This document shows, in pieces, positions 1,144-12,466 of a DNA stretch of 35,318 bases. The translations under genes and the position numbers were made by a program. The notes under the pieces were generated by a model. It searched no databases. It was not told the DNA's origin and saw only the letters and a list, made by a program, of their open reading frames with translations. Within the stretch, counting starts at the first letter, position 1. Each line of letters starts with the position of its first letter. This stretch comes from Blastocatellia bacterium (lineage in GTDB: Bacteria; Acidobacteriota; Blastocatellia; UBA7656; JADIYM01). The stretch lies in contig JAJTWZ010000003.1 of NCBI GenBank assembly GCA_021463145.1, forward strand, positions 1 through 35,318, written 5' to 3'.

Positions 1144-1420
1144 GGATGCTCGGCTCCGTCATGAGCCTTGTCAGGCGCGGCGACGGCGATGGCGGGCTGT
1201 CGAGCGCTCGGACGAACTCATTCCACGTCTCGCGAGGAAGACGGATGTGCGTCTCCTCGGCGAGGACTCGCTGGGCTTCTCGGGAAGCCACGTCGAGGAC
1301 GAACTCCGTGACGGTCTTGTGGCGGAGCGCGGCGGCGCGATGAATGAGATCCTTCTGAGCGGCCGACGCGCGTACCGCTATGCGCTCACTCTTGCCTGGA
1401 TCGTTCGTCCGGGTCGCCAT
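1133..1420 (-). CDS. DUF1778 ribbon-helix-helix antitoxin (TacA-like)
   Basis: This 95-residue protein has a basic N-terminal half with SERIAVRASAAQKDLIHRAA, which fits the ribbon-helix-helix fold of DUF1778 antitoxins. A C-terminal tail follows (RLPRETWNEFVRALDSPP) of the kind that wraps the GNAT toxin and masks its active site. The start ATG at 1420 has AGGAGA 6 nt upstream (1427-1432 on the opposite strand). It is the first gene of the two-gene operon, the usual order. DUF1778-GNAT complexes repress their own promoter, and a perfect 7-bp inverted repeat at 1440-1462, just upstream of the ribosome binding site, is a good operator candidate. Confidence 0.88.
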   Translation of the reverse strand: MATRTNDPGKSERIAVRASAAQKDLIHRAAALRHKTVTEFVLDVASREAQRVLAEETHIRLPRETWNEFVRALDSPPSPSPRLTRLMTEPSILER

Positions 1421-1439
1421 AGTCTTTCTCCTGACAAGG

Positions 1440-1462
1440 TGTGTACCTGATGGGCGTACACA
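1440..1462. promoter_or_regulatory. Inverted repeat, probable operator of the toxin-antitoxin operon
   Basis: TGTGTAC (1440-1446) and GTACACA (1456-1462) form a perfect 7-bp inverted repeat with a 9-nt spacer. It begins 20 nt upstream of the antitoxin start and next to its ribosome binding site. Ribbon-helix-helix antitoxins bind such half-sites as dimers. The position suits conditional autorepression, but binding is inferred. Confidence 0.5.
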
Positions 1463-1881
1463 TCGTACGGCATCGCTCGTTACTCGGCAACCTCCGTCGA
1501 TATGTCTGGCAAAATTGACGGGGACAGGCTTCCTTCGCCATAACCGATGTAGACTTAATAACTTGCGGGATCCAGTCCAAGCATGTCAGAGGCATATCAG
1601 AGCGAGTTTGCTCGCGAATCCGGTTGCCAGGTTGACTTCTGGCCGGTGAACAAGGGGCTCGGCGGTTTGTTGGGCTGGCGATGGCCTTTCAGTGACGCGA
1701 GTGCCGACGGACAAGAGTGGCGAAGCGACGAAGCTCGCAATGCCACTGCTGCCGCGACGTCTCAGCCGAAGCGATGTCGCGGTTTGCGAAGCGATTCCCG
1801 GATCAACTGCTCACGGGGGCCTGTTTCCGCCGTTTACGCCGATGGACGCGGGGTGATCACCTGGCGGCCGCTTGGCGGTTA
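1463..1881. other. Stretch without a supportable gene
   Basis: I find no frame here with recognisable protein motifs or a good start. An open frame from 1583 to 2032 on the plus strand has low-complexity, non-protein-like composition and overlaps the transposase scrap on the other strand. A short word AAATTGACGGG recurs near 1514 and 1899. The stretch is probably decayed insertion debris. Confidence 0.4.
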
Positions 1882-2073
1882 CGTAGTGGCCACGTGGGAA
1901 ATTGACGGGTACCTGTCGACGGCGGTGGCGGCGTCGACGCTTGCGCCGAACCTCTCCTCCCCGACGCCATTGGGAGCGGGAGCCGTCCAGATACTTCCGC
2001 ACGTCGAGCAGCGCAGGACCTGCCGTTCGTAGATGGTTCCAGTGACGGTCGGCGACCCCGTCAGATTCACGTG
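1882..2073 (-). pseudogene. IS66-family transposase (TnpC) remnant, zinc-finger region
   Basis: Read on the minus strand, about 60 codons encode TGTIYERQVLRC, then STCGSIWTAPAPNGVGEE and a short tail. The LRCxxCGxxxTAxxPxGVGEE pattern is that of the zf-IS66 zinc-binding segment and the start of the catalytic core of IS66 transposases. Homology begins at about 2073, right where the right-hand repeat-protein fragment starts on the other strand, and fades before 1882. No IS ends, TnpA/TnpB or DDE residues remain. It is a non-functional fossil. The call rests on one conserved motif, so family assignment is good but not certain. Confidence 0.6.
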
Positions 2074-2430
2074 CTGGCGCCGCTTGTGCTCGTGGAGTGG
2101 GAACCGGCGACGTCGGGGACGTTCTTCCTTCGCAACACGAACTCGCATGGACCGGCGGACATAACGCCGTTCACGTTCGGTGCGCCGAACAAGACGCCGC
2201 TCGCGGGCGACTGCAACGCGGACGTAACCGACACGGCCGGCGTGTACAGCAACGAGACCGCGGCCTGGTTCCTGACGAACGCGAACGTGGCCGGCGCCGT
2301 CGCCGGCTTCACGTTCACGCACGGAGTCGCGGGCCAGGCCGGGCTCGTGGGCGACTGGGACGGCCGGATGCCGCTCCAGTGTGAGTGGACAGGATTGACA
2401 GGATTCTTCGAGGACTTACACGAACAATGA
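2071..2430 (+). pseudogene. Fragment B of a GDWNGDGTD-type repeat protein
   Basis: From about nt 2107 the frame encodes SGTFFLRNTNSHGPAD, a GDCNADVTDTAGVY unit, a WFLTNANVAGAVAG unit and a final GDWDG that breaks off near nt 2367. These are the same beta repeats as in fragment A at 94-621, on the same strand. The remaining residues to the stop at 2430 are unrelated and include a tandem 9-mer at 2388-2405. A hairpin at 2429-2451 overlaps the stop codon. The frame has no credible start or signal peptide and should be non-functional. Confidence 0.55.
2388..2405. repeat. Tandem 9-mer GACAGGATT x2
   Basis: GACAGGATT occurs twice back to back, directly after the point where repeat-protein homology ends. 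Short ACAGGATT-type tandem tracts are seen in non-coding DNA of many bacteria. Its position at a breakpoint is the only notable thing. Confidence 0.6.
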
Positions 2431-2451
2431 AGGCCTCTCAGGGTGGCCTTC
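2429..2451 (+). terminator. Hairpin at the end of repeat-protein fragment B
   Basis: GAAGGCC (2429-2435) and GGCCTTC (2445-2451) make a perfect 7-bp stem with a 9-nt loop, overlapping the stop codon of the preceding frame. No U-run follows, so it is at best a weak or Rho-assisted terminator. Confidence 0.35.
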
Positions 2452-2538
2452 GTCCCTGTCCTCGGAAATCCCGGAAGAAGCCAATGCTCGGCGCCTGCCT
2501 TGACGGAGATGGGATGTGACAGGGATGCTCGCCGTCCG

Positions 2539-3027
2539 ATGGACATCCGCATCGAGATCGACGACCTGACGCGGCCCGAGGTGCGGGCGCTCCTCGACGA
2601 GCACCTCGAGAACATGCACGCGCTCTCGCCGCCGGAAAGCGTGCACGCGTTGCCGGTCGAGGAGCTGCGGCAGCCGGACGTGACGTTCTGGTCGGTCTGG
2701 GAGGGCGCGGAGCTGCTCGGTTGCGGCGCGCTCAAGGAACTGACGGCGGAGCATGGCGAATTGAAGTCGATGCGGACGGCGATGTCGCACCGGCGGCGGG
2801 GCGTCGGACGGATGGTCGTCGAGCACGTTCTCGGCGAAGCGCGGCGGCGCGGGTACGTGAGGTTGAGCCTCGAGACCGGTTCGCAGCCGGCGTTCGAGCC
2901 AGCGCGGCGGCTCTACGCGCAATTCGGGTTCGTGTTCTGTGCGCCGTTCGGCGAGTACGTCGAGGACCCGAACAGTGTCTTCATGACGCTCGGACTCGCC
3001 GCGGTGGCCAGAGGTACCGTGAAATAA
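2539..3027 (+). CDS. GNAT N-acetyltransferase, YsnE-like
   Basis: This 162-residue single-domain GNAT protein starts at the ATG at 2539, the first Met that gives a family-like N-terminus (MDIRIEIDDLTRPEV). The central ELKSMRT and HRRRGVGRMVVEHVL segments (residues 74-98) match the acetyl-CoA binding beta4/alpha3 region. The C-terminal LETGSQPAFEPARRLY and PFGEYVEDPNSVFM segments match the YsnE/PhnO-like branch almost word for word. Substrates of this branch are mostly small amines or amino acids, and the actual substrate is unknown. It stands alone with no operon partner. It looks intact, unlike its flanking sequences. Confidence 0.85.
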   Translation: MDIRIEIDDLTRPEVRALLDEHLENMHALSPPESVHALPVEELRQPDVTFWSVWEGAELLGCGALKELTAEHGELKSMRTAMSHRRRGVGRMVVEHVLGEARRRGYVRLSLETGSQPAFEPARRLYAQFGFVFCAPFGEYVEDPNSVFMTLGLAAVARGTVK

Positions 3028-3091
3028 TACACACGGCTTGACTTGCGCTGATAGACACTTGCCTGAATGGCGAAGGCTAGCCTTGTAAATC

Positions 3092-4295
3092 ATGGAATCA
3101 TACTCCGTGATTGCATACATGATTGGACGCCGGATTGGTCCCGTCATCGAGGAGCGCCTGTCAGAAGTTCCTGCGGTGGTGCTCCTAGGGCCACGGCAGA
3201 CGGGCAAGACCACGCTTGCGCTCGAGATTCCCGCCCGTCGCGATGCGGTGTATCTCGATCTCGAGTCCGACAGTGACCGGGCAAAACTCGTGGAGCCGGA
3301 ACTTCATCTGTCCGAGCACGGCGGTCGACTTGTCGTGCTCGACGAGATTCACAGAGCGCCGGGCATTTTCCCGACGCTGCGCGGGATGATCGATCGTTCG
3401 AGGCGTGAAGGCCGTTCGACGGGACGCTATCTCCTGCTCGGCTCTGCGTCGCTCGACCTGTTGCGACAGTCCGGCAAGACGCTGGCGGGCCGTGCAAGCT
3501 ATTTTGAGCTCAACCCCTTCGACACACTCGAGGTCGATTCATCGAGCGAGGGTCTGGAGCGCGTGTGGGTGCGCGGCGGGTTTCCGGAGAGCCTTCTTGC
3601 TCCAAGCGGTGCGCGGAGCATGCGCTGGCGGCTCGACTTCGTTCGCTCGTATCTCGAACGGGACATTCCACAGCTCGGACCTCGCGTTGCCGCGGAGCGA
3701 CTGCGCCGAATGTGGACCATGCTTGCGCATCATCAGGGGGGGAATTCTGAACCTCGCGCAACTGGCGCGAAACCTGTCCGTCGATGCAAAGACCGCGGGA
3801 TCCTATGTCGATCTGCTCGTGGATCTGCTTTTGGTACGTCGACTCCCGCCGTGGCACGCGAATATCGGCAAGCGACTTGTACGCTCGCCGAAGGTGTACT
3901 TGCGCGATAGCGGTCTGGTGCACGCACTCCTTGGACTCGGCGATCGGGAAGCGCTGCTTTCGCATCCCGTCGTCGGTGCCAGTTGGGAGGGGTTCGCGGT
4001 CGAGCAGTTGTTGTCCGCGGCGCCGGAGGGCGCCGAAGGACACTTCTATCGGACGAGCGGAGGTGCGGAGATCGATCTCCTCCTGAGCTTTCCCGGGGGA
4101 CGGCTCTGGGCAATCGAGATCAAGCGGAGCCTCGCTCCGCGAGTCGAGCGTGGATTTCACTCCGCGTGTGCCGATGTCGACCCGGAGAAGCGGTTCGTCG
4201 CTTATCCGGGAGCGGAAGTGTTTCCCGCTTCCGAAGGCATCGAAGCCGTCCCGCTGCGCGAACTCGCCCGCCGCTTGTCGGAGGCAGGGCGGTAG
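3092..4295 (+). pseudogene. AAA_14/DUF4143 ATPase, split by a frameshift
   Basis: Two overlapping frames together make one roughly 400-residue protein. The 5' frame (from ATG 3092, or ATG 3119) carries Walker A GPRQTGKTT, Walker B LVVLDEIHRAPG, and YLLLGSASLDLL in the sensor region. The 3' frame carries NLAQLARNLSVDAKTAGSYV, then KRLVRSPKVYLRDSGLVHAL and GAEIDLLL/IEIKRS, which is DUF4143 with its nuclease-like C-terminus. They meet at seven consecutive G residues (3736-3742). Removing one G restores a continuous frame reading HHQGGILNL. These proteins are common stand-alone ATPases in accessory regions, and their role is not established. The shift may be a real null mutation, a sequencing indel, or slippage. 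The next DNA downstream is a transposase remnant on the other strand. Confidence 0.8.
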
Positions 4296-4434
4296 GCCGT
4301 CGGCGCCCCCAGAGCGCATCCGACGCCACGGGCTCACACGCTTTAGCAGGCGACGCGGCCATACTTGCTGGTCGTGAACCGGTGACATCTCCTCCTCTCG
4401 ATGTTGACCGTCCCATTCGGTGCGGCGAAGGTGC

Positions 4435-4775
4435 GCGTGAATTGGGATCGGTGAAATTCCTCTGCGCCTTGGCGTCGGGGACGGCCGTCTCCGGATCGGG
4501 GACCCTCGGGGCGCGCCCTCCCGGCTTCCTTCCGGTCTCCTCGATCTGCCGTTCTCGTTCCGCAATGCGAGCGCGTGCCTCGGTTTCCGAAGCGTCCGCC
4601 TTCTCTCGCGCCGCCTGCTCCAGTTCTGCCTGCACCTCGCGGGCCTTCCGCAGCCGGCTTTCGCGCCGCTGAAGGTACTCGGGCAGCTCGTCGCCTCCTT
4701 GTCATTGCCGTACCGCCCATCTTCCGCGTCGTCAATTCGCTGCGCCCCCTCCAGAAGCGCCAGGATTACGCTGCT
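4435..4775 (-). pseudogene. IS1182-family transposase remnant, frameshifted
   Basis: Read on the minus strand from about 4775, one frame gives LLEGAQRIDDAEDGRYGNDKE. After a single-base loss near 4694 the next frame gives DELPEYLQRRESRLRK, a charged helical stretch, then PDAKAQRNFTDPNSR ending at 4435. The series RYG..GDELP, an E/A/R-rich helix and AQRNFTDPxSR is characteristic of the middle of IS1182-type transposases. The N-terminal domain and everything after NFTDPNSR, including the later catalytic acidic residues, are gone. No terminal inverted repeats are recognisable. This is a dead element beside the frameshifted ATPase. Confidence 0.7.
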
Positions 4776-5024
4776 GAAGGCAGGTGCCAATTACCGCAAC
4801 GCTGCTTGCGAGCGCATCATGGCAGTACGCCGACGCGTTCATCTCACAAGCACCGTAGCAACAGCACCAGAACCCACGGCTCAGGTAGTGGGACTTGCGC
4901 CGTGAATCGGTCCAACCCCGCAGGAGCGAAAGTCGCCGCGGAAGGTCAGCCCGATCGGTTACGGCCATACGAACCCAGGGAATCTGGACTCATCGCCATC
5001 AGTTCGCCGCGGTTCGACGCTGTT
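4776..5024. other. Intergenic stretch, no gene seen
   Basis: Between the transposase remnant and the end of the ABC1 kinase gene, both strands carry short open frames without recognisable motifs, ribosome binding sites or repeats. A terminator for the leftward kinase gene would be expected here, but I see no clear stem followed by a T-run. Confidence 0.4.
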
Positions 5025-6533
5025 CTATCTCTCGGACTCCCTCGCTGTGCGTGGGCCGGTGTAATGCTTCCACGCCATCTTCGCGAGTTTCCACGTCTTC
5101 GACCAGTCGATCGAGCCTTCATCACCCTTCAGCACGCGCGAAAGGATCCTCCCGGCAAAATATCGTCCCTCCCGCCGAAGCATGAATTCCTTCGCGTGAG
5201 GTCGCGCGACGAGGAAGAAGTTGAAGTCCGGATCGGCCTTCGAGCCGATCCCTTCGATCGTAGTCAGCGCTCGCAGAACGAACGTGAAATGAGGCGGAAT
5301 CTGGAATGGGTATCGATACAGCAACTCGGCAACCTCTTCGCTCATGTCCCTGAACGTGAGGTCGCCTAGCCGCAAACCTTCGTATTGCTCGATCAGTTTC
5401 GTTCCGATGTGGTCGAGTCCCTCATGATCGAGTGGATCGATTCGCAGGAACCCAAGGCCGGCGGCCGCCCGCAGCAGACCGCGCCAGTCCTTCTCGACGA
5501 TGTAGAAGAAGGCATCGACGAGCTTCGACTGAAGTTCGAGCGATATTCGACCCGCCATTCCAAAATCGAAGAAGGCGAGGCGGCCGTCGTGCATGATCCT
5601 CAGGTTTCCGGGATGAGGGTCGGCGTGAAAGAAGCCGTCTTCGAGCAGTTGCTTCAGATAAGCCTGTACGAGCCGTTCGGTTACGTCCGATGGGGCCAGT
5701 CCGAGCCTGCGCAATCCGGGATGGTCGTCGACCTTGACGCCTGGGATGTACTCCATCGTGATTACGCGGCGCGTGCTCAACTCCGGGAAGACTTTCGGAA
5801 CGTGGATAGACGGCCAACTCGCGAAGTTCGCCCGGAACGTCTCGGCGTTCTCGACTTCCTTTACATAGTCGATCTCGTCAGCGATGACGCTCGCGAACTC
5901 GTCTATGACGCCGCTCCAGTCCGTTGCCTTCAGCACATCCGAGACCTGCATGCGCGGTGCGAAGTGTCGAAGCGTTGCAATGTCGAGACCGATCCGTTCC
6001 TCGAGACCCGGGCGCTGCACCTTGACGACGACTTCCTCTCCGCTCCTCAGCCGCGCCCTGTACACCTGGCCAAGGCTCGCAGAGGCGATTGGAGACGAGT
6101 CGATCGACGCGTACAGGTCGCGCACCGGTTGTCCGAGTTCTTCCTCGATGATCGAGTAAGCGTCGGCATCCGGGAACGGCGGGACGCGGTCGAGGAGTTC
6201 CCTGAGCGCCTCCGTATACTCGAACGGCAGCAAGTCCACACGGGTCGACAACATCTGCCCGATCTTGATGAAAGCCGGTCCCAGTGCGATCAGCTCGTTT
6301 CGCAGCCTCTCACCCTCTGCCCGCCGCCGGGACTCGGGACTCTCGCCCGTCCAGCCGCGCTCGTTCAGCCAGATCGCAGTCCGTAGCTTGAAAGCCGCCC
6401 AGCCAATTCGCGCGATTCGTATGCGCCCTCGCCATCCGTACGATTCGAGGCTCGCTCCCTGGCGCGGCTCCATCGCGGTAGCCGGATCGGGGAGCTGGAT
6501 CATCTTTGGTTGGTTGGCCACGGCCCTGAGCAT
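5025..6533 (-). CDS. ABC1/UbiB (AarF) family atypical protein kinase
   Basis: This 502-residue member of the ABC1/ADCK/UbiB family has the diagnostic motifs in order: KIGQ (residues 90-93) in the N-terminal extension, the Ala-rich nucleotide loop SASLGQVY (151-158), Lys171 in VVVKVQRPG, the HADPHPGN catalytic loop (303-310) and DFG (323-325). Bacterial members assist ubiquinone or other isoprenoid-quinone synthesis, probably as ATPases that handle lipid intermediates at the membrane. Others are less defined. No ubi or men gene is adjacent, so the role is inferred from family. It follows the VWFA-related gene by 64 nt on the same strand and may be co-transcribed. Met11 and Met21 are alternative starts; none has a clear ribosome binding site. 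Confidence 0.9.
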   Translation of the reverse strand: MLRAVANQPKMIQLPDPATAMEPRQGASLESYGWRGRIRIARIGWAAFKLRTAIWLNERGWTGESPESRRRAEGERLRNELIALGPAFIKIGQMLSTRVDLLPFEYTEALRELLDRVPPFPDADAYSIIEEELGQPVRDLYASIDSSPIASASLGQVYRARLRSGEEVVVKVQRPGLEERIGLDIATLRHFAPRMQVSDVLKATDWSGVIDEFASVIADEIDYVKEVENAETFRANFASWPSIHVPKVFPELSTRRVITMEYIPGVKVDDHPGLRRLGLAPSDVTERLVQAYLKQLLEDGFFHADPHPGNLRIMHDGRLAFFDFGMAGRISLELQSKLVDAFFYIVEKDWRGLLRAAAGLGFLRIDPLDHEGLDHIGTKLIEQYEGLRLGDLTFRDMSEEVAELLYRYPFQIPPHFTFVLRALTTIEGIGSKADPDFNFFLVARPHAKEFMLRREGRYFAGRILSRVLKGDEGSIDWSKTWKLAKMAWKHYTGPRTARESER

Positions 6534-6597
6534 AGCGTGCCGTACGCCCGCTCGTCGCGCACGGTTCCGACCGTAATAGCGGTCCTGGCGGACGCCG

Positions 6598-7725
6598 TCA
6601 GTCCTTTGGCGCCAGATATCCTGGCCGCGTCACGACGACCGAACCGATGGCCTTGGGAACAGTGACCGAAAGGACGCGCCACGAACCATCGTGCCTGCTG
6701 TTTGTCGGGTAATAACCGATCGAGTAACGCGTGCGGAGCTCGGCCGCAATGGCCCTATAAGCAGCACCTGCATCGACGAGGCTCGCGATCGGATAGACGC
6801 GGCCGCCGGACCGTTTGGCCATTTCGGCCGCCTGCTGCCGCGCCAGATCGTACAGGGAGCCATTGATCTCTAGGCGCTCGATCGCCGAGTAGGTCGACGG
6901 TTCTCGCCCGCGATCCGGGCTGTCCGGCGCGAAGTTCTCGTAGAAGCGCGCAAGCTGGCTCTTCGAGAAGTTGATTCGGCTTTCTCCATCCTCAGGCTGA
7001 GTGAGTAGTCTGTCCGAGAAAGACTGGGTGTCGAGCAGGATCACGTAGATCGAGATCCCGGACTGGTCCGCAAGCCTTACGGCTTCGTCGAAATCGTAGG
7101 AGCTCGTCGAGTCGACACAGTCCGAAAACAGAACGACCGCCCGGCGCCTGGACGATGTATCGGCCGCGACGGGACTTTCGCCGAGAGCAAGGACCAGCGC
7201 GTCGTAGAGTGAAGTTCCAGTATTCGAGTCGAAGCGCTTCGCTCCAGGGTCCGTAGCGATCGTTGGTCCGAAGTCTGAGAGTTGCCGAGCCAGTATCGAC
7301 CTGTTGCTGGTCAGTTCGTCCGGAAGCTGAACGCCACGGCTGAAAGACGCGATACCCAACCTGTCGGCAGGACTCAGCCCGCCGATGAACTCGCTCGCCG
7401 CCGACCGCATTCTGCCAATGTCGTTAATGGTGGACCCGCTCGTGTCGAGGAGCAGCAGAAGTGAGTACGGGTCGCTCACCGGTTCGAAGAACTCGATCTT
7501 CTGCGGGACGCCGTCCTCGAGCACCTGAAATGACTCAGGCCGCAATCCGGTTACCGGCTGCCCGGCACGGTTCGTCACCGAGACCGTGAGAGTCACCAGG
7601 TCCGACCTCAACTCGACCGCGTCGCCGTTACCCGGCTGCGGCTGTACGCGGCGCGGGCGGTCCTGTGCGCCGGCCGATACCGCAAACATCATTGCCAGCA
7701 GTAAATGGATGCACGTCGAGCGCAT
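6598..7725 (-). CDS. Secreted VWFA-related domain protein (Acidobacteria type)
   Basis: The protein has 375 residues from the ATG at 7725, chosen because it begins a clear signal peptide (MRSTCIHLLLAMMFAVSAGA, cleaved near 20). The segment VELRSDLVTLTVSVTNRAGQ followed by LRPESFQVLEDGVPQKIEFF is the hallmark N-terminus of the VWFA-related family (TIGR03436), which is abundant in Acidobacteria. The MIDAS metal site begins at DTSGS (94-98), and later conserved parts include TSLYDALVLAL and AVVLFSDCVDS. The C-terminus (RYSIGYYPTN..., VTRPGYLAPKD) is also typical. It should act outside the cytoplasmic membrane in metal-dependent protein binding; the partner is unknown. It is first of a minus-strand pair with the ABC1 kinase and divergent from the cassette starting at 7938. 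Confidence 0.9.
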   Translation of the reverse strand: MRSTCIHLLLAMMFAVSAGAQDRPRRVQPQPGNGDAVELRSDLVTLTVSVTNRAGQPVTGLRPESFQVLEDGVPQKIEFFEPVSDPYSLLLLLDTSGSTINDIGRMRSAASEFIGGLSPADRLGIASFSRGVQLPDELTSNRSILARQLSDFGPTIATDPGAKRFDSNTGTSLYDALVLALGESPVAADTSSRRRAVVLFSDCVDSTSSYDFDEAVRLADQSGISIYVILLDTQSFSDRLLTQPEDGESRINFSKSQLARFYENFAPDSPDRGREPSTYSAIERLEINGSLYDLARQQAAEMAKRSGGRVYPIASLVDAGAAYRAIAAELRTRYSIGYYPTNSRHDGSWRVLSVTVPKAIGSVVVTRPGYLAPKD

Positions 7726-7937
7726 GGACTGAAATGTTACGCAGCCTGTCCATGGCGCGCCAGCCGCCGGCGGGGCCCGGCAATTGGCAGCGCCGGCGAA
7801 GTGCTGTAGGGTGTGTGACGGTCCGATGCGGGCTGTGCCCACATAGCCCGCCAGTCAGTGATGTTCTCGAAACCGGAACAACAGGGGATTCATCCGTCAC
7901 GATCGCGTGGTAAACGTCGCCGTGATGGTGCGCCCAG

Positions 7938-8912
7938 GTGAGAGATGGTCCGGCTTCGGTTGAGCGGTGCGTTCCAGGCGATCTCTGCCTGGTTACCACG
8001 TACTTCAACCCCGCCGGTTACGCGAAGAAGCGGCAGCGATACCTCGACTTCGCCACGCGCTGCCGGATAGCCGGGCTGCCCCTCTTCACGGTCGAGTGCG
8101 CATTCGGAGACACGCCTTTCGAGCTGCCGGCTTCGGCGCCGGTAATCCAGGTTCGCGCAAGAGACGCAATGTGGCAGAAGGAGAGGCTCTTCAACATTTC
8201 GCTGGCCCGCATCCCGGCCCGCTTCGAGAAGCTGGTCTGCCTCGACTTCGACGTAATCTTCGAGAACGCAAACTGGGCCGGGTGCACGTCCGCGCTTCTG
8301 GAGCAGGTTCCACTAGTTCAGCCTTTCGAGACTGCGATCTGGCTGCCGAAGGACGCCATCACCGACGATGGAAGCGGGCGCGTTCTTCCGGGGTTCGCAT
8401 CGCGATACGTTCAGAATCCAATGGTTGCTCGTGGTGGCGCCTTCGAGGCGCACGGAATGCCGGGATTCGCGTGGGCCGCTCGCCGTCAGTTGCTCGAGGA
8501 ACACGGCCACTATGACGCGTGCGTGATCGGGGGCGGCGATCATCTGATTGCTCACGCTGCGTGCGGAGATTGGTCGTCCGAGTGCTTCGACTGGAGTGTG
8601 GGCCTCGGCTCGCGTCAACACCTGCATTTCGAACGCTGGGCGAGGCGGTTCCACGCAGACGTCAAGGGGCGGATCGCTTTCGTGCCCGGCCGTCTTCTGC
8701 ACATCTGGCACGGATCGTGGGACAGCCGTCATTACACGTCGCGGCACCGCCATCTGAAGATCCACGACTTCGACCCAGACCTCGATATCGAAATCGACGG
8801 TAATGGATGCTGGGAGTGGTCGAGCGACAAGCCGGAACTTCATTCGGCCGTGGCGACGTACTTCGCGCTTCGGCTCGAGGATGGAGACGGCTCCACGGCC
8901 GAAGTCGCGTGA
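7938..8912 (+). CDS. GT-A-like glycosyltransferase family protein
   Basis: This 324-residue protein starts with GTG at 7938; a stop at 7923 in the same frame rules out a start upstream of it, and no ATG is near. After an N-terminal beta strand (LCLVTTYFNP) comes a stretch with MWQKERLFN, then LVCLDFDVIF with a D-F-D motif at 103-105, placed like the DxD metal/nucleotide-sugar site of GT-A enzymes. A later GFAWAARRQLL segment plus GGGDH (198-202) echoes the hG.awa.rr...GgeD region of GT2/GT7-type transferases. I do not recognise the exact family; donor and acceptor are unknown. It is first gene of a compact trio with a nucleotidyltransferase and an HPr-kinase-like protein, so it probably helps modify the same product. 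There is no membrane segment, so it should be cytoplasmic. Confidence 0.65.
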   Translation: MRDGPASVERCVPGDLCLVTTYFNPAGYAKKRQRYLDFATRCRIAGLPLFTVECAFGDTPFELPASAPVIQVRARDAMWQKERLFNISLARIPARFEKLVCLDFDVIFENANWAGCTSALLEQVPLVQPFETAIWLPKDAITDDGSGRVLPGFASRYVQNPMVARGGAFEAHGMPGFAWAARRQLLEEHGHYDACVIGGGDHLIAHAACGDWSSECFDWSVGLGSRQHLHFERWARRFHADVKGRIAFVPGRLLHIWHGSWDSRHYTSRHRHLKIHDFDPDLDIEIDGNGCWEWSSDKPELHSAVATYFALRLEDGDGSTAEVA

Positions 8913-8919
8913 CTGGCAC

Positions 8920-10098
8920 GTGAACGGGCAGTCGAAATACGGTGAGTTCGCGGCCAACTGCGCGGCGTTCGCGAGGCTGCTAAACGAGGGCGAATCCGCA
9001 GCGGCGGAGTCGTTCTCGCGCATCGCGCCGGAATCCATAGAGACATTCGTCGCCGCCAACAAACTCGAGTTTCACTTCGCCGGGCTCGCGCTCGAGTCCC
9101 CGCTCAGGCTGGCAATCGGACAAGCTCTGGCCGGCGGCTACGACGGCTATGCCGAACGGCAACGTGACAGGCAGGAGAGTCTTCTCGACGAGTTGTGGTT
9201 CCTCGCTGAGAGGCTGGAAGGTGCGGCTATTCCGTTCGTTCTGCTGAAGGGACTCTATTTCGCCGACGTCTTCTACGGTGGGCTCGAACGCCGGTTCTCT
9301 TGGGATCTGGATGTCCTGGTCAAGGCCGCCGACGCCGCAAGGGTCGATCGTCTGTTGCGGCGCAGCGGCTACTTCCGTCGCTCGGCCGTCCTGGGGTCTC
9401 GCGCACTTGCGGCCAGGTTCACGCATGCATTCGATTACGGCAACGCGCGACCCCGGTTCTCGGTGGACCTGCACTGGATGCTTTCGCGCCATCCGTCGTT
9501 CAGGGTCGACGAAGCCGCGATCTGGTCGAATCTGCGGTCCTGCACCTTGCTCGATCGCCGCTTCGCCGTGCTTTCGATCGAGTACGAGATCGTCTCGAAC
9601 GTTCTTTCGACGTTCCGCGACATTCAGCGTGGCGCGATCAGACTGCGAGCGCTGGTGGATCTGTACAAGGTGCTCGAGATCGCAGACGCGTCAATCGACT
9701 GGGGGGGCTTTCTGGACCGGCGCCGCGCGGAGCGAATCGGATTGATCTCGGTGAATGTCCTCTCGCTACTGCTCGACCTGTTCGACTGCCGGAAGCGGTT
9801 TTCCGGCGCTGCCAGACTGGTCGACTCCGTGCCGGAGATGCTCGTGCCATATCCCGGGGGACTCGCCGCGAATCTGTTCGAGCCTGGTGGGGCCAGTCTG
9901 AAGAACCGTGGATGGACGGCGGGTGCTTACGAATGCTCGCGCACGAGCGTGGCCGCGTGGTGGATGGTCTCGCTCCCGTTCCGTCTGGCGGTCTACCGAT
10001 CCGGGCGCCGTTATGCGAATTTCAAGCGGCGTATCCACGTGATTAAGAATCGGCTTCGCGGCGCCGAGCCGGTGCCAGTGGCGCGAAGGCGGCGGTAA
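8920..10098 (+). CDS. NTP_transf_5 nucleotidyltransferase family protein
   Basis: The protein has 392 residues from the GTG at 8920. An alternative ATG at 8881 would overlap the upstream gene by 32 nt, and neither start has a good ribosome binding site. The core IPFVLLKGLYFADVFY followed by RRFSWDLDVLVKA (residues 104-136) matches PF14907: an LLKG helix and a D-x-D metal pair on the following strand (D129, D131). The C-terminal part is mostly helical, with a basic tail. Family members are found with HPr-kinase-like proteins in RiPP and exopolysaccharide/exosortase loci, where they are thought to transfer a nucleotide or sugar-phosphate group; the reaction here is not known. The stop codon overlaps the next start by one base (TAATG), implying coupled translation with the kinase-like gene. 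Confidence 0.8.
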   Translation: MNGQSKYGEFAANCAAFARLLNEGESAAAESFSRIAPESIETFVAANKLEFHFAGLALESPLRLAIGQALAGGYDGYAERQRDRQESLLDELWFLAERLEGAAIPFVLLKGLYFADVFYGGLERRFSWDLDVLVKAADAARVDRLLRRSGYFRRSAVLGSRALAARFTHAFDYGNARPRFSVDLHWMLSRHPSFRVDEAAIWSNLRSCTLLDRRFAVLSIEYEIVSNVLSTFRDIQRGAIRLRALVDLYKVLEIADASIDWGGFLDRRRAERIGLISVNVLSLLLDLFDCRKRFSGAARLVDSVPEMLVPYPGGLAANLFEPGGASLKNRGWTAGAYECSRTSVAAWWMVSLPFRLAVYRSGRRYANFKRRIHVIKNRLRGAEPVPVARRRR

Positions 10099-11252
10099 TG
10101 ATCGAATCGGTTATGCCGACGGTGACTCTCGAGTTCGAAAGCCTGACAATACGCGCGCATTGCGGCACGCGAGCGAATCGCGAATGGCTGACCGAGTTTC
10201 TAGTTCCCGACTTCGTGGAGTCGAGTTCCGACTCCGTCGATTGCACTGTGAGGGTTGCGCTCGACGACGCACTTTACGCAGAAGCACTCGGCGAGGGCTG
10301 TCCGGCCGATGCTCCGCTTCTCGACTGCTTCGCGCTCGATAGCAGCGTGGTTCGGCTGCCGATTCTGCGCCGTGCGGGCACCGAGACGGTGGTCGCCGAT
10401 CTTCAGTTCGAGTCTATTTACCGGATCGACCCGGATCGCCGTCTCGTCACGATCATCTCGCACTCGGACAGCATTCGGGTACGAGCGTCGCTTCTGCGCG
10501 TGGTCCGGGAGTTCGCGATGAACGCAATGCACGGCCGAGGCCTTTTTCTGCACGCTTCCTCGATCGCGATGGGCGCCGACGGAGTTGCCTTCGCCGGCCG
10601 CCGGAGCGCGGGAAAGACGACTCTTCTCACGTATCTGCTCGGGCACGGCGTTGGCGCTTACCTCTCCAACGACCGCGTATTCGTGGCGGATCGCGATCCG
10701 GTGCCTGTTCTTCGAAACGTCCCTACAGTGGTCTCGGTCCGGCCCGGCACCCTGGAGTTGTGCGCGGGTTTCGGAGAACGGCTCTTCGGATCGGGGTACG
10801 CGACGTACCTGACGACTATCGTCGAGTCGGACAACGCCGGTCCGAGCGAAGTCAGGACTAATGCGTTCGGCAACTACTTCCTGAGTCCGGCCCAGTTTCG
10901 TTCGTTGTTCGGGGAGCCGCAGTCGACGAGCGCCACCGCGGCCGCGCTGGTCTATCCGGTCATCGACGAAACGACTCCTGCATTCCGGATTGAGCCGCTC
11001 ACGATCGAAGAGTCGATTTCGCGCGTGCAAGACGCTCTGCTCGGATCGGGGAGCTGGCGCAAGGGACCGGATGCGCTCGCTATCCCTGTTCACATACCTT
11101 CGCCATCGGACGAAGAGTTGGCCATCAGGGTCAGGCGGTTTTTCGAGCGCGTCCGGTGCTTCGAACTACGGCTTGGCAAGCGCGCTTACGAGAGCACGGT
11201 GCTTGCAGACGCAGTGAAAGCCCTCGCGACCCCCATTCGGCTCCAAGACTGA
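10098..11252 (+). CDS. HPr kinase/phosphorylase-like (HprK-related) protein
   Basis: This 384-residue protein starts at ATG 10098, overlapping the upstream TAA. Its N-terminal half (about 1-140) is divergent. The C-terminal half has RGLFLHASSI (147-156), the P-loop GRRSAGKTTLL (167-177) and LSNDRVFV (189-196), the arrangement of HPr kinase C-terminal domains. Catalytic-domain relatives without the HPr-sensing N-terminal domain phosphorylate small molecules or RiPP precursors (the lasso-peptide kinases ThcoK/PadeK) or accompany exosortase loci. No HPr or PTS gene is in the window, so catabolite control is unlikely. Together with the glycosyltransferase and nucleotidyltransferase upstream it forms a modification cassette. 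It ends 29 nt from the convergent peptidase gene. Confidence 0.8.
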   Translation: MIESVMPTVTLEFESLTIRAHCGTRANREWLTEFLVPDFVESSSDSVDCTVRVALDDALYAEALGEGCPADAPLLDCFALDSSVVRLPILRRAGTETVVADLQFESIYRIDPDRRLVTIISHSDSIRVRASLLRVVREFAMNAMHGRGLFLHASSIAMGADGVAFAGRRSAGKTTLLTYLLGHGVGAYLSNDRVFVADRDPVPVLRNVPTVVSVRPGTLELCAGFGERLFGSGYATYLTTIVESDNAGPSEVRTNAFGNYFLSPAQFRSLFGEPQSTSATAAALVYPVIDETTPAFRIEPLTIEESISRVQDALLGSGSWRKGPDALAIPVHIPSPSDEELAIRVRRFFERVRCFELRLGKRAYESTVLADAVKALATPIRLQD

Positions 11253-11281
11253 TTGTTGCAGGTCGCGAGGAGGCCGCCGGA

Positions 11282-12466
11282 TCAGAACTCGGCAAGCACG
11301 GGAATCAGGTGCGACTGGATCGGCTGTCCTGAGACGATGGCTTCTGTCTCGGTAAGGTAAACGTCTACTTCGGACCGGATGCCGAACTTCCCGGGCAGGT
11401 AAACACCGGGTTCGATAGAGAAGCAGGTGTTCGGCACCAATCGCCGCTCGTCGCGCGTCTCGAGGTTGTCGATGTTCGCGCCGTTGCCGTGGACCATTTC
11501 GTGGATGTTGTGACCGGTCCTGTGGATGAAGTAGTCGCCGAATCCTTCGGCCGAAATCGACGCGCGAGTCGCATTGTCGACTTCCCAGCCGAAAACCGTC
11601 TCACCGGCGGCAACGCGCTGCTGAACGAACGAGATGCCCGCATCTCTACCGCCGCTCACGACCTCGAACACACGGGCGTGCTCGTCAGGAACGTGATCGT
11701 CCATGAAGCAGGTCCACGTGATGTCGAAATAGACGGCGTGCGGCTTGTCGAGCTTCGCCCAAAGATCGGTGAGAAGCAGTTCGCCGCGCCTGAGAGGCGC
11801 AGAACCCAACTCGGGCGGCGAGTAGTGCGGCATCGCGCTGTTCGGGCCAACCGCAACGATTGGCGGGTGATCCGTCACGAGATTGGCCTTCGAGTAGAGG
11901 CCCATCATGAAGTCCTGAATCTCGCGCTCGACGGTGGGGACCCCGTCGCGGATCCGCCGCGCGACTTCCGCATATGTAGTATCGACGATCTGACGCATCG
12001 CTACGGCCGCGTCGAGGTGACTCTGGAGTTGCTCCGGACGCATCACCGCCTCGAACTGCTGGACGAGATCCGCCGAGCTGACGACCTCGGTACCAAACGA
12101 CCGGATCAGCTCTACCGTGCCAGCGTCGACGCGCGAAATGTAGGGAATGGCGTTCATCGGCGAGTACTGCATGGCGACACGGCCAGCACCGGCAAGAGTC
12201 TCCCTGACGTGGCCGTGCAACTGCTCCCAGGGCAGGTAGACCTTTTTCACTCCGGGCAGGGAATCGAGGGCCTCGCGCTCGATGGAATGCACGATCCTGG
12301 TCGCCTCTCCCTTCGCGGGAATGTAGTAGAACCAGCGCCGCGTGGCGTGGCCCTCGTGCAGTCCAAGCACGTTCGTCGCGATTGGATCCGACCCTCGGAA
12401 GCTGTAGAAGAGCCACCCATCGAGCTCGCGCTGCCTTAGTGCGTCCTGAATGTTCGTAATGTCCAT
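11282..12466 (-). CDS. M24 family metallopeptidase (Xaa-Pro aminopeptidase-like)
   Basis: This 394-residue protein has a creatinase-type N-terminal domain and a C-terminal pita-bread fold. All five metal ligands expected for the family are visible: Asp in LLTDLWAK, Asp in YFDITWT, His in HRTGHNIHEMVHG, Glu in FSIEPGVYL and Glu in IRSEVDVYLTE. Family members remove an N-terminal residue before proline or cleave related imido bonds, using two Mn or Co ions in the cytoplasm. The start ATG at 12466 has AAGGGA close upstream. It lies 39 nt downstream of the M20 peptidase gene on the same strand, and the pair probably forms a peptide-degradation operon. Exact specificity (PepP versus dipeptidase) cannot be read from sequence. 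Confidence 0.88.
   Translation of the reverse strand: MDITNIQDALRQRELDGWLFYSFRGSDPIATNVLGLHEGHATRRWFYYIPAKGEATRIVHSIEREALDSLPGVKKVYLPWEQLHGHVRETLAGAGRVAMQYSPMNAIPYISRVDAGTVELIRSFGTEVVSSADLVQQFEAVMRPEQLQSHLDAAVAMRQIVDTTYAEVARRIRDGVPTVEREIQDFMMGLYSKANLVTDHPPIVAVGPNSAMPHYSPPELGSAPLRRGELLLTDLWAKLDKPHAVYFDITWTCFMDDHVPDEHARVFEVVSGGRDAGISFVQQRVAAGETVFGWEVDNATRASISAEGFGDYFIHRTGHNIHEMVHGNGANIDNLETRDERRLVPNTCFSIEPGVYLPGKFGIRSEVDVYLTETEAIVSGQPIQSHLIPVLAEF

What the first reader, a model, noticed from the sequence alone, without database searches (positions are those of the whole stretch)
7938..11252. Compact glycosyltransferase / NTP_transf_5 / HPr-kinase-like cassette without a known substrate
Three genes packed with 7-nt and 1-nt (overlapping) junctions encode a GT-A-like transferase of unrecognised family, a PF14907 nucleotidyltransferase and an HPr-kinase-like protein. 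The kinase-nucleotidyltransferase pair is known from lasso-peptide clusters (kinase adds phosphate to the precursor C-terminus, nucleotidyltransferase adds more groups) and from exosortase-associated loci, where a PqqD-like protein accompanies them. Here the PqqD-like protein, precursor and cyclase are absent and a glycosyltransferase takes their place. The set could sequentially phosphorylate, nucleotidylate and glycosylate one acceptor, a modification system I cannot match to a described one.
Basis: partly seen in the sequence, partly recalled or inferred. Interest (0 to 1): 0.65.

Follow-up and report, generated by a model that had tools for sequence, protein, structure and literature searches.

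The report
Kinase–nucleotidyltransferase–glycosyltransferase trio, substrate unknown
A tightly packed set of three bacterial enzyme genes is a pared-down form of a rare gene cluster, found in at least four bacterial phyla, that most likely adds a phosphate and sugars to a molecule that is not a peptide; no matching described pathway was found in the papers that could be searched.

Summary
The trio is real: GT 7938-8912, NTP_transf_5 8920-10098 (7-nt gap), HPr-kinase-like 10098-11252 (1-nt TAATG overlap), between unrelated genes on the opposite strand. The first protein has no Pfam match, but its predicted structure (pLDDT 92.7) is a GT-A glycosyltransferase. The exact trio is not a conserved unit: 75 of 79 sampled GT loci lack the other two genes. 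The GTs that do sit with them are not one lineage (clade rejected, p-AU 1.7e-52). The kinase and nucleotidyltransferase are conserved together. In nine other genomes they come with an APH-type phosphotransferase (fused to the kinase in two), with glycosyltransferases of varying families, and usually an exporter. No PqqD/RRE or precursor gene was called there. The window copy lacks the APH partner and exporter, and its genome holds no clear APH homologue. All 11 cluster kinases have Asn-Asp where HPr kinases have Asp-Asp. A separate PqqD + NTP_transf_5 + HPr-kinase-like locus lies elsewhere in the same genome. Best reading: a minimal phosphoglycosylation cassette for a non-peptide acceptor, related to but distinct from lasso/LPP RiPP tailoring pairs. 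New variant of a known kind; substrate unproven.

The parts
7938..8912 (+). GT-A-fold glycosyltransferase of an unnamed family; DxD at 8244-8252 (D103, D105), invariant W257-H258-G259
   Evidence: 17 invariant columns in 54 relatives; 10 of 54 relatives hit Glycos_transf_2 weakly; AlphaFold2 pLDDT 92.7; beta4GalT7 4irq Z 13.5, rmsd 3.6, 194 aligned
8920..10098 (+). NTP_transf_5 (PF14907) nucleotidyltransferase-fold transferase; D129/D131 at 9304-9312; GTG start at 8920 (longest ORF begins 8803)
   Evidence: conserved K110-G111, R125, D129, D131, H185; model pLDDT 84 matches MenT1 Z 12.9 and ANT(2'')-Ia Z 10.5-11.2
10098..11252 (+). HPr-kinase-like kinase, N-D subfamily: H152, P-loop G167-T174 at 10596-10619, N191-D192 at 10668-10673
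   Evidence: clade of cluster kinases supported 96/98

Best explanation
The trio is a minimal phosphoglycosylation cassette. The HPr-kinase-like protein phosphorylates an acceptor that is not a ribosomal peptide encoded nearby (a glycan, glycolipid or small metabolite). The NTP_transf_5 protein then transfers a group onto that phosphate; by analogy with PsmN of pseudomycoidin this would be a hexose. The GT-A enzyme adds or extends sugar. The locus is a reduced member of a cluster type whose usual core is APH phosphotransferase + N-D HPr-like kinase + NTP_transf_5, with interchangeable glycosyltransferases and usually an exporter (Wzm/Wzt-type, MsbA-type or MFS). Shown: the gene families, the folds of two of the three proteins, intact key residues, cluster composition across phyla. 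Inferred: all catalytic steps, their order, the acceptor, and joint action.
For: Three co-directional genes with 7-nt and -1-nt junctions. NTP + N-D kinase + APH occur together in nine other loci of four phyla (L048, L062, L102, L104, L128, L129, L138, L149, L151), plus kinase + APH at a contig end in L150; those nine carry glycosyltransferases (L048 and L151 partly by similarity) and most carry an exporter (ABC2_membrane + Wzt_C in L062, ABC_membrane + ABC_tran in L104, ABC in L138, MFS in L128). APH and kinase are fused in L104 and L149. Window kinase and window NTP fall inside the cluster clades (96/98 and 100/99), and the window NTP is apart from the PqqD-type paralogue on C9. Cluster genes are packed with no called precursor or RRE gene. 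GT-A fold with conserved DxD; nucleotidyltransferase fold close to small-molecule adenylyltransferases. Chemical precedent: PsmK phosphorylates and PsmN is needed for one or two hexoses on the phosphate (PMC9266682, PMC8498205).
Against: No substrate or activity is shown. The window lacks the APH and the exporter that mark the other clusters, so it could be a decayed or repurposed remnant. Its GT is not of one lineage with the other cluster GTs. The N-D kinase lacks one Asp of the catalytic D-D pair, so kinase activity cannot be assumed. A peptide substrate encoded elsewhere in the genome is not excluded.
Confidence: 0.5

Rival explanations
1. The trio tailors a ribosomal peptide, as in lasso or LPP RiPP clusters, with precursor, RRE (PqqD-like) and protease supplied in trans from another contig, for example C9.
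For: HprK-like kinase + NTP transferase + MsbA-like exporter, with RRE and a peptidase, define the LPP RiPP family, and the kinase and NTP transferase occur in paeninodin-type lasso clusters, often in glycosyltransferase-rich loci (PMC13381572; PMC7533575). The same genome has a PqqD gene with a Cys-rich tail on C9.
Against: The C9 locus has its own NTP_transf_5 and HPr-kinase-like genes. None of the nine complete related clusters has a called RRE or precursor gene. The window kinase is not of the D-D type described for lasso kinases.
Confidence: 0.15
2. Ordinary surface-polysaccharide genes: kinase and nucleotidyltransferase decorate an O-antigen-like or exopolysaccharide chain (a phosphate side group) and the GT is one of its transferases.
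For: L062 and L048 carry an ABC permease with a Wzt-like ATPase next to GT, NTP, APH and kinase.
Against: L102, L104 and L150 instead sit with metabolite-type genes (aldehyde dehydrogenase with isochorismatase domain, isopropylmalate-dehydrogenase-like; an AMP-ligase/carrier/thioesterase protein in L104). No polymerase, flippase or polysaccharide exporter was recognised among the neighbours of the window trio that were scanned.
Confidence: 0.25
3. A decayed remnant or chance juxtaposition: pair and GT arrived separately and no longer form a pathway.
For: APH and exporter absent, no clear APH homologue in the genome. The window GT is closest to stand-alone Gemmataceae GTs (47%). The kinase has no close homologue in 57 related genomes.
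Against: Intact frames, near-zero gaps, conserved motifs, codon use and GC like the neighbours. GT of this family next to the pair in four other genomes against roughly 0.003 expected.
Confidence: 0.1

Closest known systems
PsmK/PsmN of pseudomycoidin and PadeK/ThcoK (lasso peptide tailoring)
   Same: HPr-kinase-like kinase paired with an annotated nucleotidyltransferase; PsmN is needed for hexoses on a phosphoserine (PMC9266682, PMC8498205)
   Different: No precursor, B1/B2 or macrolactam synthetase here; kinase has N-D instead of the His-Lys-Asp-Asp motif; a separate GT-A enzyme is present, and an APH in the related clusters
LPP RiPP family (HprK kinase LppK, NTP transferase LppN, RRE, SpI peptidase, MsbA-like exporter; PMC13381572)
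   Same: Kinase + NTP transferase, with MsbA-type exporters in related clusters L102, L104, L138; glycosyltransferase-rich surroundings
   Different: No RRE, SpI or precursor gene called; an APH phosphotransferase is the constant partner in the related clusters; Acidobacteriota (inferred), Gemmatimonadota, Planctomycetota and Pseudomonadota rather than mainly Bacillota
HprK_rel_B (TIGR04355)
   Same: Best NCBIfam match of the window kinase; the full member L153 also reads T-N-D
   Different: Scores 36 bits against a cut-off of 200; separated from the cluster kinases by a 96/98 branch; no NTP_transf_5 hit beside L153
FomB fosfomycin-monophosphate kinase (NF000361)
   Same: Weak profile match to cluster kinases L128 (2.8e-7) and L151 (3e-6); acts on a small-molecule phosphate (PMC4790336)
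   Different: Far below the curated cut-off of 400; not reported for the window kinase

Membership tests
NTP_transf_5 (PF14907) | Profile score over Pfam's gathering cut-off | tested here: met
   104.4 bits against 31.2
HPr kinase/phosphorylase (canonical) | His + Walker A P-loop GxxxxGK[ST] + catalytic Asp-Asp | tested here: not met
   His152 and GRRSAGKT present, but Asp-Asp reads Asn191-Asp192; profile homology to 1jb1 (8e-5), so HPr-kinase-like but not a canonical member
HprK_rel_B (TIGR04355) | Score over the curated cut-off of 200 | tested here: not met
   36 bits
Lasso peptide / LPP RiPP cluster | Precursor peptide and RRE (PqqD-like) gene at the locus | tested here: not met
   No room or called gene at 7842-11282; the genome's PqqD lies on C9
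Lasso peptide cluster | Macrolactam synthetase (Asn-synthase-like) and B2 protease | tested here: not met
   Flanking proteins tested are UbiB, VWA, M24, PepT and SBP_bac_5 families
GT-A glycosyltransferase | GT-A fold with DxD motif | tested here: met
   Model pLDDT 92.7; 628 of 998 aligned chains Z >= 8, top rows are glycosyltransferases; D103/D105 invariant in 54 relatives
APH/N-D kinase/NTP_transf_5 cluster (this report) | APH phosphotransferase beside kinase and NTP | tested here: not met
   Absent at the locus; best genome match only 2.7e-4 over 35 residues
Exosortase/PEP-CTERM-associated locus | Exosortase or PEP-CTERM genes in the genome | not tested

The most novel reading that the evidence does not exclude
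An undescribed phosphoglycosylation pathway for non-peptide acceptors. In the full clusters the APH enzyme places a phosphate on an acceptor hydroxyl, the N-D HPr-like kinase adds a further phosphate or phosphorylates a phosphate, and NTP_transf_5 transfers sugar onto it. The window carries the smallest version, in which kinase, NTP_transf_5 and one GT suffice.
Probability: 0.22. Interest if true: 0.7.

Novelty: new variant of a known kind. Interest (0 to 1): 0.45.

Why it matters
HPr-like kinase and NTP_transf_5 pairs are, in the experiments found, tied to ribosomal peptides. A multi-phylum set of clusters with the same pair, a third kinase-like enzyme, glycosyltransferases and exporters, but no peptide gene called, suggests that the chemistry is broader. 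It also gives small sets of enzymes to express, so that the open question of what NTP_transf_5 transfers becomes testable. The trio in this window is the smallest such set seen here.

Tried and rejected
Trio as one conserved unit: rejected (75 of 79 GT loci lack the pair; cluster GTs not a clade). Phage or plasmid origin of the GT: relatives exist on Cupriavidus/Burkholderia plasmids, in Xanthomonas phage XaC1 and beside phage-like genes in L014, but none of these carries the pair; no hit in viral contigs. Defence system: no PADLOC match. Recent insertion: the M24 neighbour is found in relatives but none of the other window genes tested lies beside it there, so no empty site could be read; codon use and GC of the trio are not foreign. 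APH elsewhere in the genome: none convincing. Third NTP match on C86: 22 bits, below cut-off. Sequence search of the GT family against solved structures: no relative. A named described system: none in the full-text searches; the library lacks most subscription papers, and two key papers were not held.

Full report
Observation. The neighbours are on the opposite strand and of other families: UbiB-like kinase and VWA protein upstream, M24 and PepT-like peptidases downstream. The middle protein is PF14907 at 104 bits. The third is a distant HPr-kinase relative: 36 bits to TIGR04355 alone, and a profile match to solved HPr kinases once its relatives are added. The first protein has no family match of its own, but 10 of the 54 proteins in its family alignment touch Glycos_transf_2 weakly, its model is confident (pLDDT 92.7), and the leading structural matches are GT-A glycosyltransferases (4irq Z 13.5, rmsd 3.6 A, 194 aligned). 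D103, D105, W257 and H258 are invariant.

The GT family. It is rare in the window's own phylum (5 of 396 genomes, the window's included) but widespread: 230 relatives in genome contigs from archaea to CPR bacteria. Of 79 loci read, only four carry both the nucleotidyltransferase and the kinase within about 10 kb: L048, L062, L102, L104. A rough chance estimate is as follows: 14 of 1,483 genomes have such a kinase at E<1e-20 (counted), and a 20-kb stretch is about 0.4% of a 5-Mb genome, so 79 loci should give about 0.003 hits against 4 seen. Clustering of sugar genes would raise the expectation but hardly to 4. The five GTs found next to the pair do not form a clade (p-AU 1.7e-52; at least four label changes forced by starred branches). 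So the GT joined the pair repeatedly. The window GT is nearest to stand-alone Gemmataceae GTs (47%).

The true core. Seeding with the kinase instead of the GT gave further loci in the window's phylum (L128, L129), the phylum of L062 (L138), the phylum of L104 (L149, L150) and the class of L102 (L151). In all nine loci outside the window that hold both kinase and NTP, an APH phosphotransferase is present too; in L104 and L149 it is fused to the kinase. Glycosyltransferases are always there but of different families: window-type in four, UDPGT-like in L128, L129 and by similarity in L151, group-1/family-2 in L138, families 28, 92 and 2-like in L149. Exporters vary: permease plus Wzt_C ATPase in L062 and by similarity L048, ABC membrane/ATPase proteins in L102 (by similarity), L104 and L138, MFS in L128 and by similarity L151. 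The genes are packed, and no short precursor or RRE gene was called between them. The window has neither APH nor exporter next to its trio, and no clear APH homologue of this kind anywhere in the genome. It is therefore a reduced form, not the archetype.

The kinase. All 11 cluster kinases keep His, P-loop and the second Asp but have Asn at the first of the two Asp residues of HPr kinase (LSNDRV in the window against IADDRV of 1jb1). A review reports that lasso kinases depend on a His-Lys-Asp-Asp motif (PMC9266682). That the first Asp acts as base in HPr kinase is my own knowledge, not tested here. Asn-Asp is not confined to these clusters: a full TIGR04355 member (L153) and a kinase beside phosphonate-type genes (L139) have it. 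The cluster kinases form one side of a 96/98 branch against those. Weak matches of two cluster kinases to FomB, which phosphorylates fosfomycin monophosphate, make a phosphate acceptor thinkable but no more.

The nucleotidyltransferase. The model (pLDDT 84.1, from only nine sequences) matches MenT1 (Z 12.9, 2.8 A, 181 aligned) and aminoglycoside adenylyltransferase ANT(2'')-Ia (Z 10.5-11.2), with FKRP lower (Z 6.4). The fold fits transfer to a small acceptor; it does not say what is transferred. The only experiments found are on PsmN, which is needed for one or two hexoses on a phosphoserine (PMC9266682, PMC8498205), and on the LPP pathway, whose final product is not known (PMC13381572).

A second locus in the same genome. 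Contig C9 (L018) has, in order and on one strand, a long surface-type protein, a PqqD-like protein with a Cys-rich tail, NTP_transf_5, a Cys-motif protein, and an HPr-kinase-like protein with LSDEYAVF. Its NTP lies apart from the window's in the tree, which argues that the trio is a separate system.

How it probably works, and how sure. Kinase phosphorylates an acceptor, NTP_transf_5 adds a group to the phosphate (hexose by analogy), the GT-A enzyme adds or extends sugar. Families, two folds, residues and cluster composition are shown; every reaction, the order and the acceptor are inferred. I give 0.5 to a non-peptide phosphoglycosylation cassette, 0.25 to the narrower reading that it is an ordinary surface-polysaccharide decoration, 0.15 to peptide tailoring in trans and 0.1 to a remnant.

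Novelty. Kinase + NTP transferase pairs are known from lasso and LPP peptides, and lasso clusters with glycosyltransferases have been listed (PMC13381572, PMC7533575). The set with APH and without peptide machinery was not found described in the searchable papers, which exclude most subscription journals. I therefore call it a new variant of a known kind.

Noticed in passing
G000 contig C9 (L018), 1391-8650: Surface-type protein, PqqD-like protein with a Cys-rich C-terminal tail, NTP_transf_5, Cys-motif protein and HPr-kinase-like protein in a row: a PqqD-accompanied set in the same genome.
   Followed up: partly
L139, 1584-11173 (G455): Two adjacent HPr-kinase-like genes beside genes that look like phosphonate biosynthesis (PEP-mutase-like, aminotransferase-like, asparagine-synthase-like); identities of the neighbours read from sequence, not scanned.
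   Followed up: no
L102 16329-19461, L104 3-1652, L150 1762-3329: Isochorismatase/aldehyde-dehydrogenase proteins and isopropylmalate-dehydrogenase-like genes recur near the kinase cluster in three genomes, hinting at a small-metabolite component.
   Followed up: partly
L041, L047, L076, L088: Open frames holding the window-type GT run on to 515-830 aa in archaea and a CPR bacterium, so the GT may be fused to another domain there.
   Followed up: no
L022, L014, L020, L021: Window-type GT genes also occur in Xanthomonas phage XaC1, beside terminase/portal-like genes in G084, and on Cupriavidus and Burkholderia megaplasmids.
   Followed up: partly
L037, L040, L077: In three Myxococcota the GT sits in the same order next to a MoxR-like ATPase gene and an IMP-dehydrogenase-like gene, suggesting a fixed role there.
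   Followed up: no
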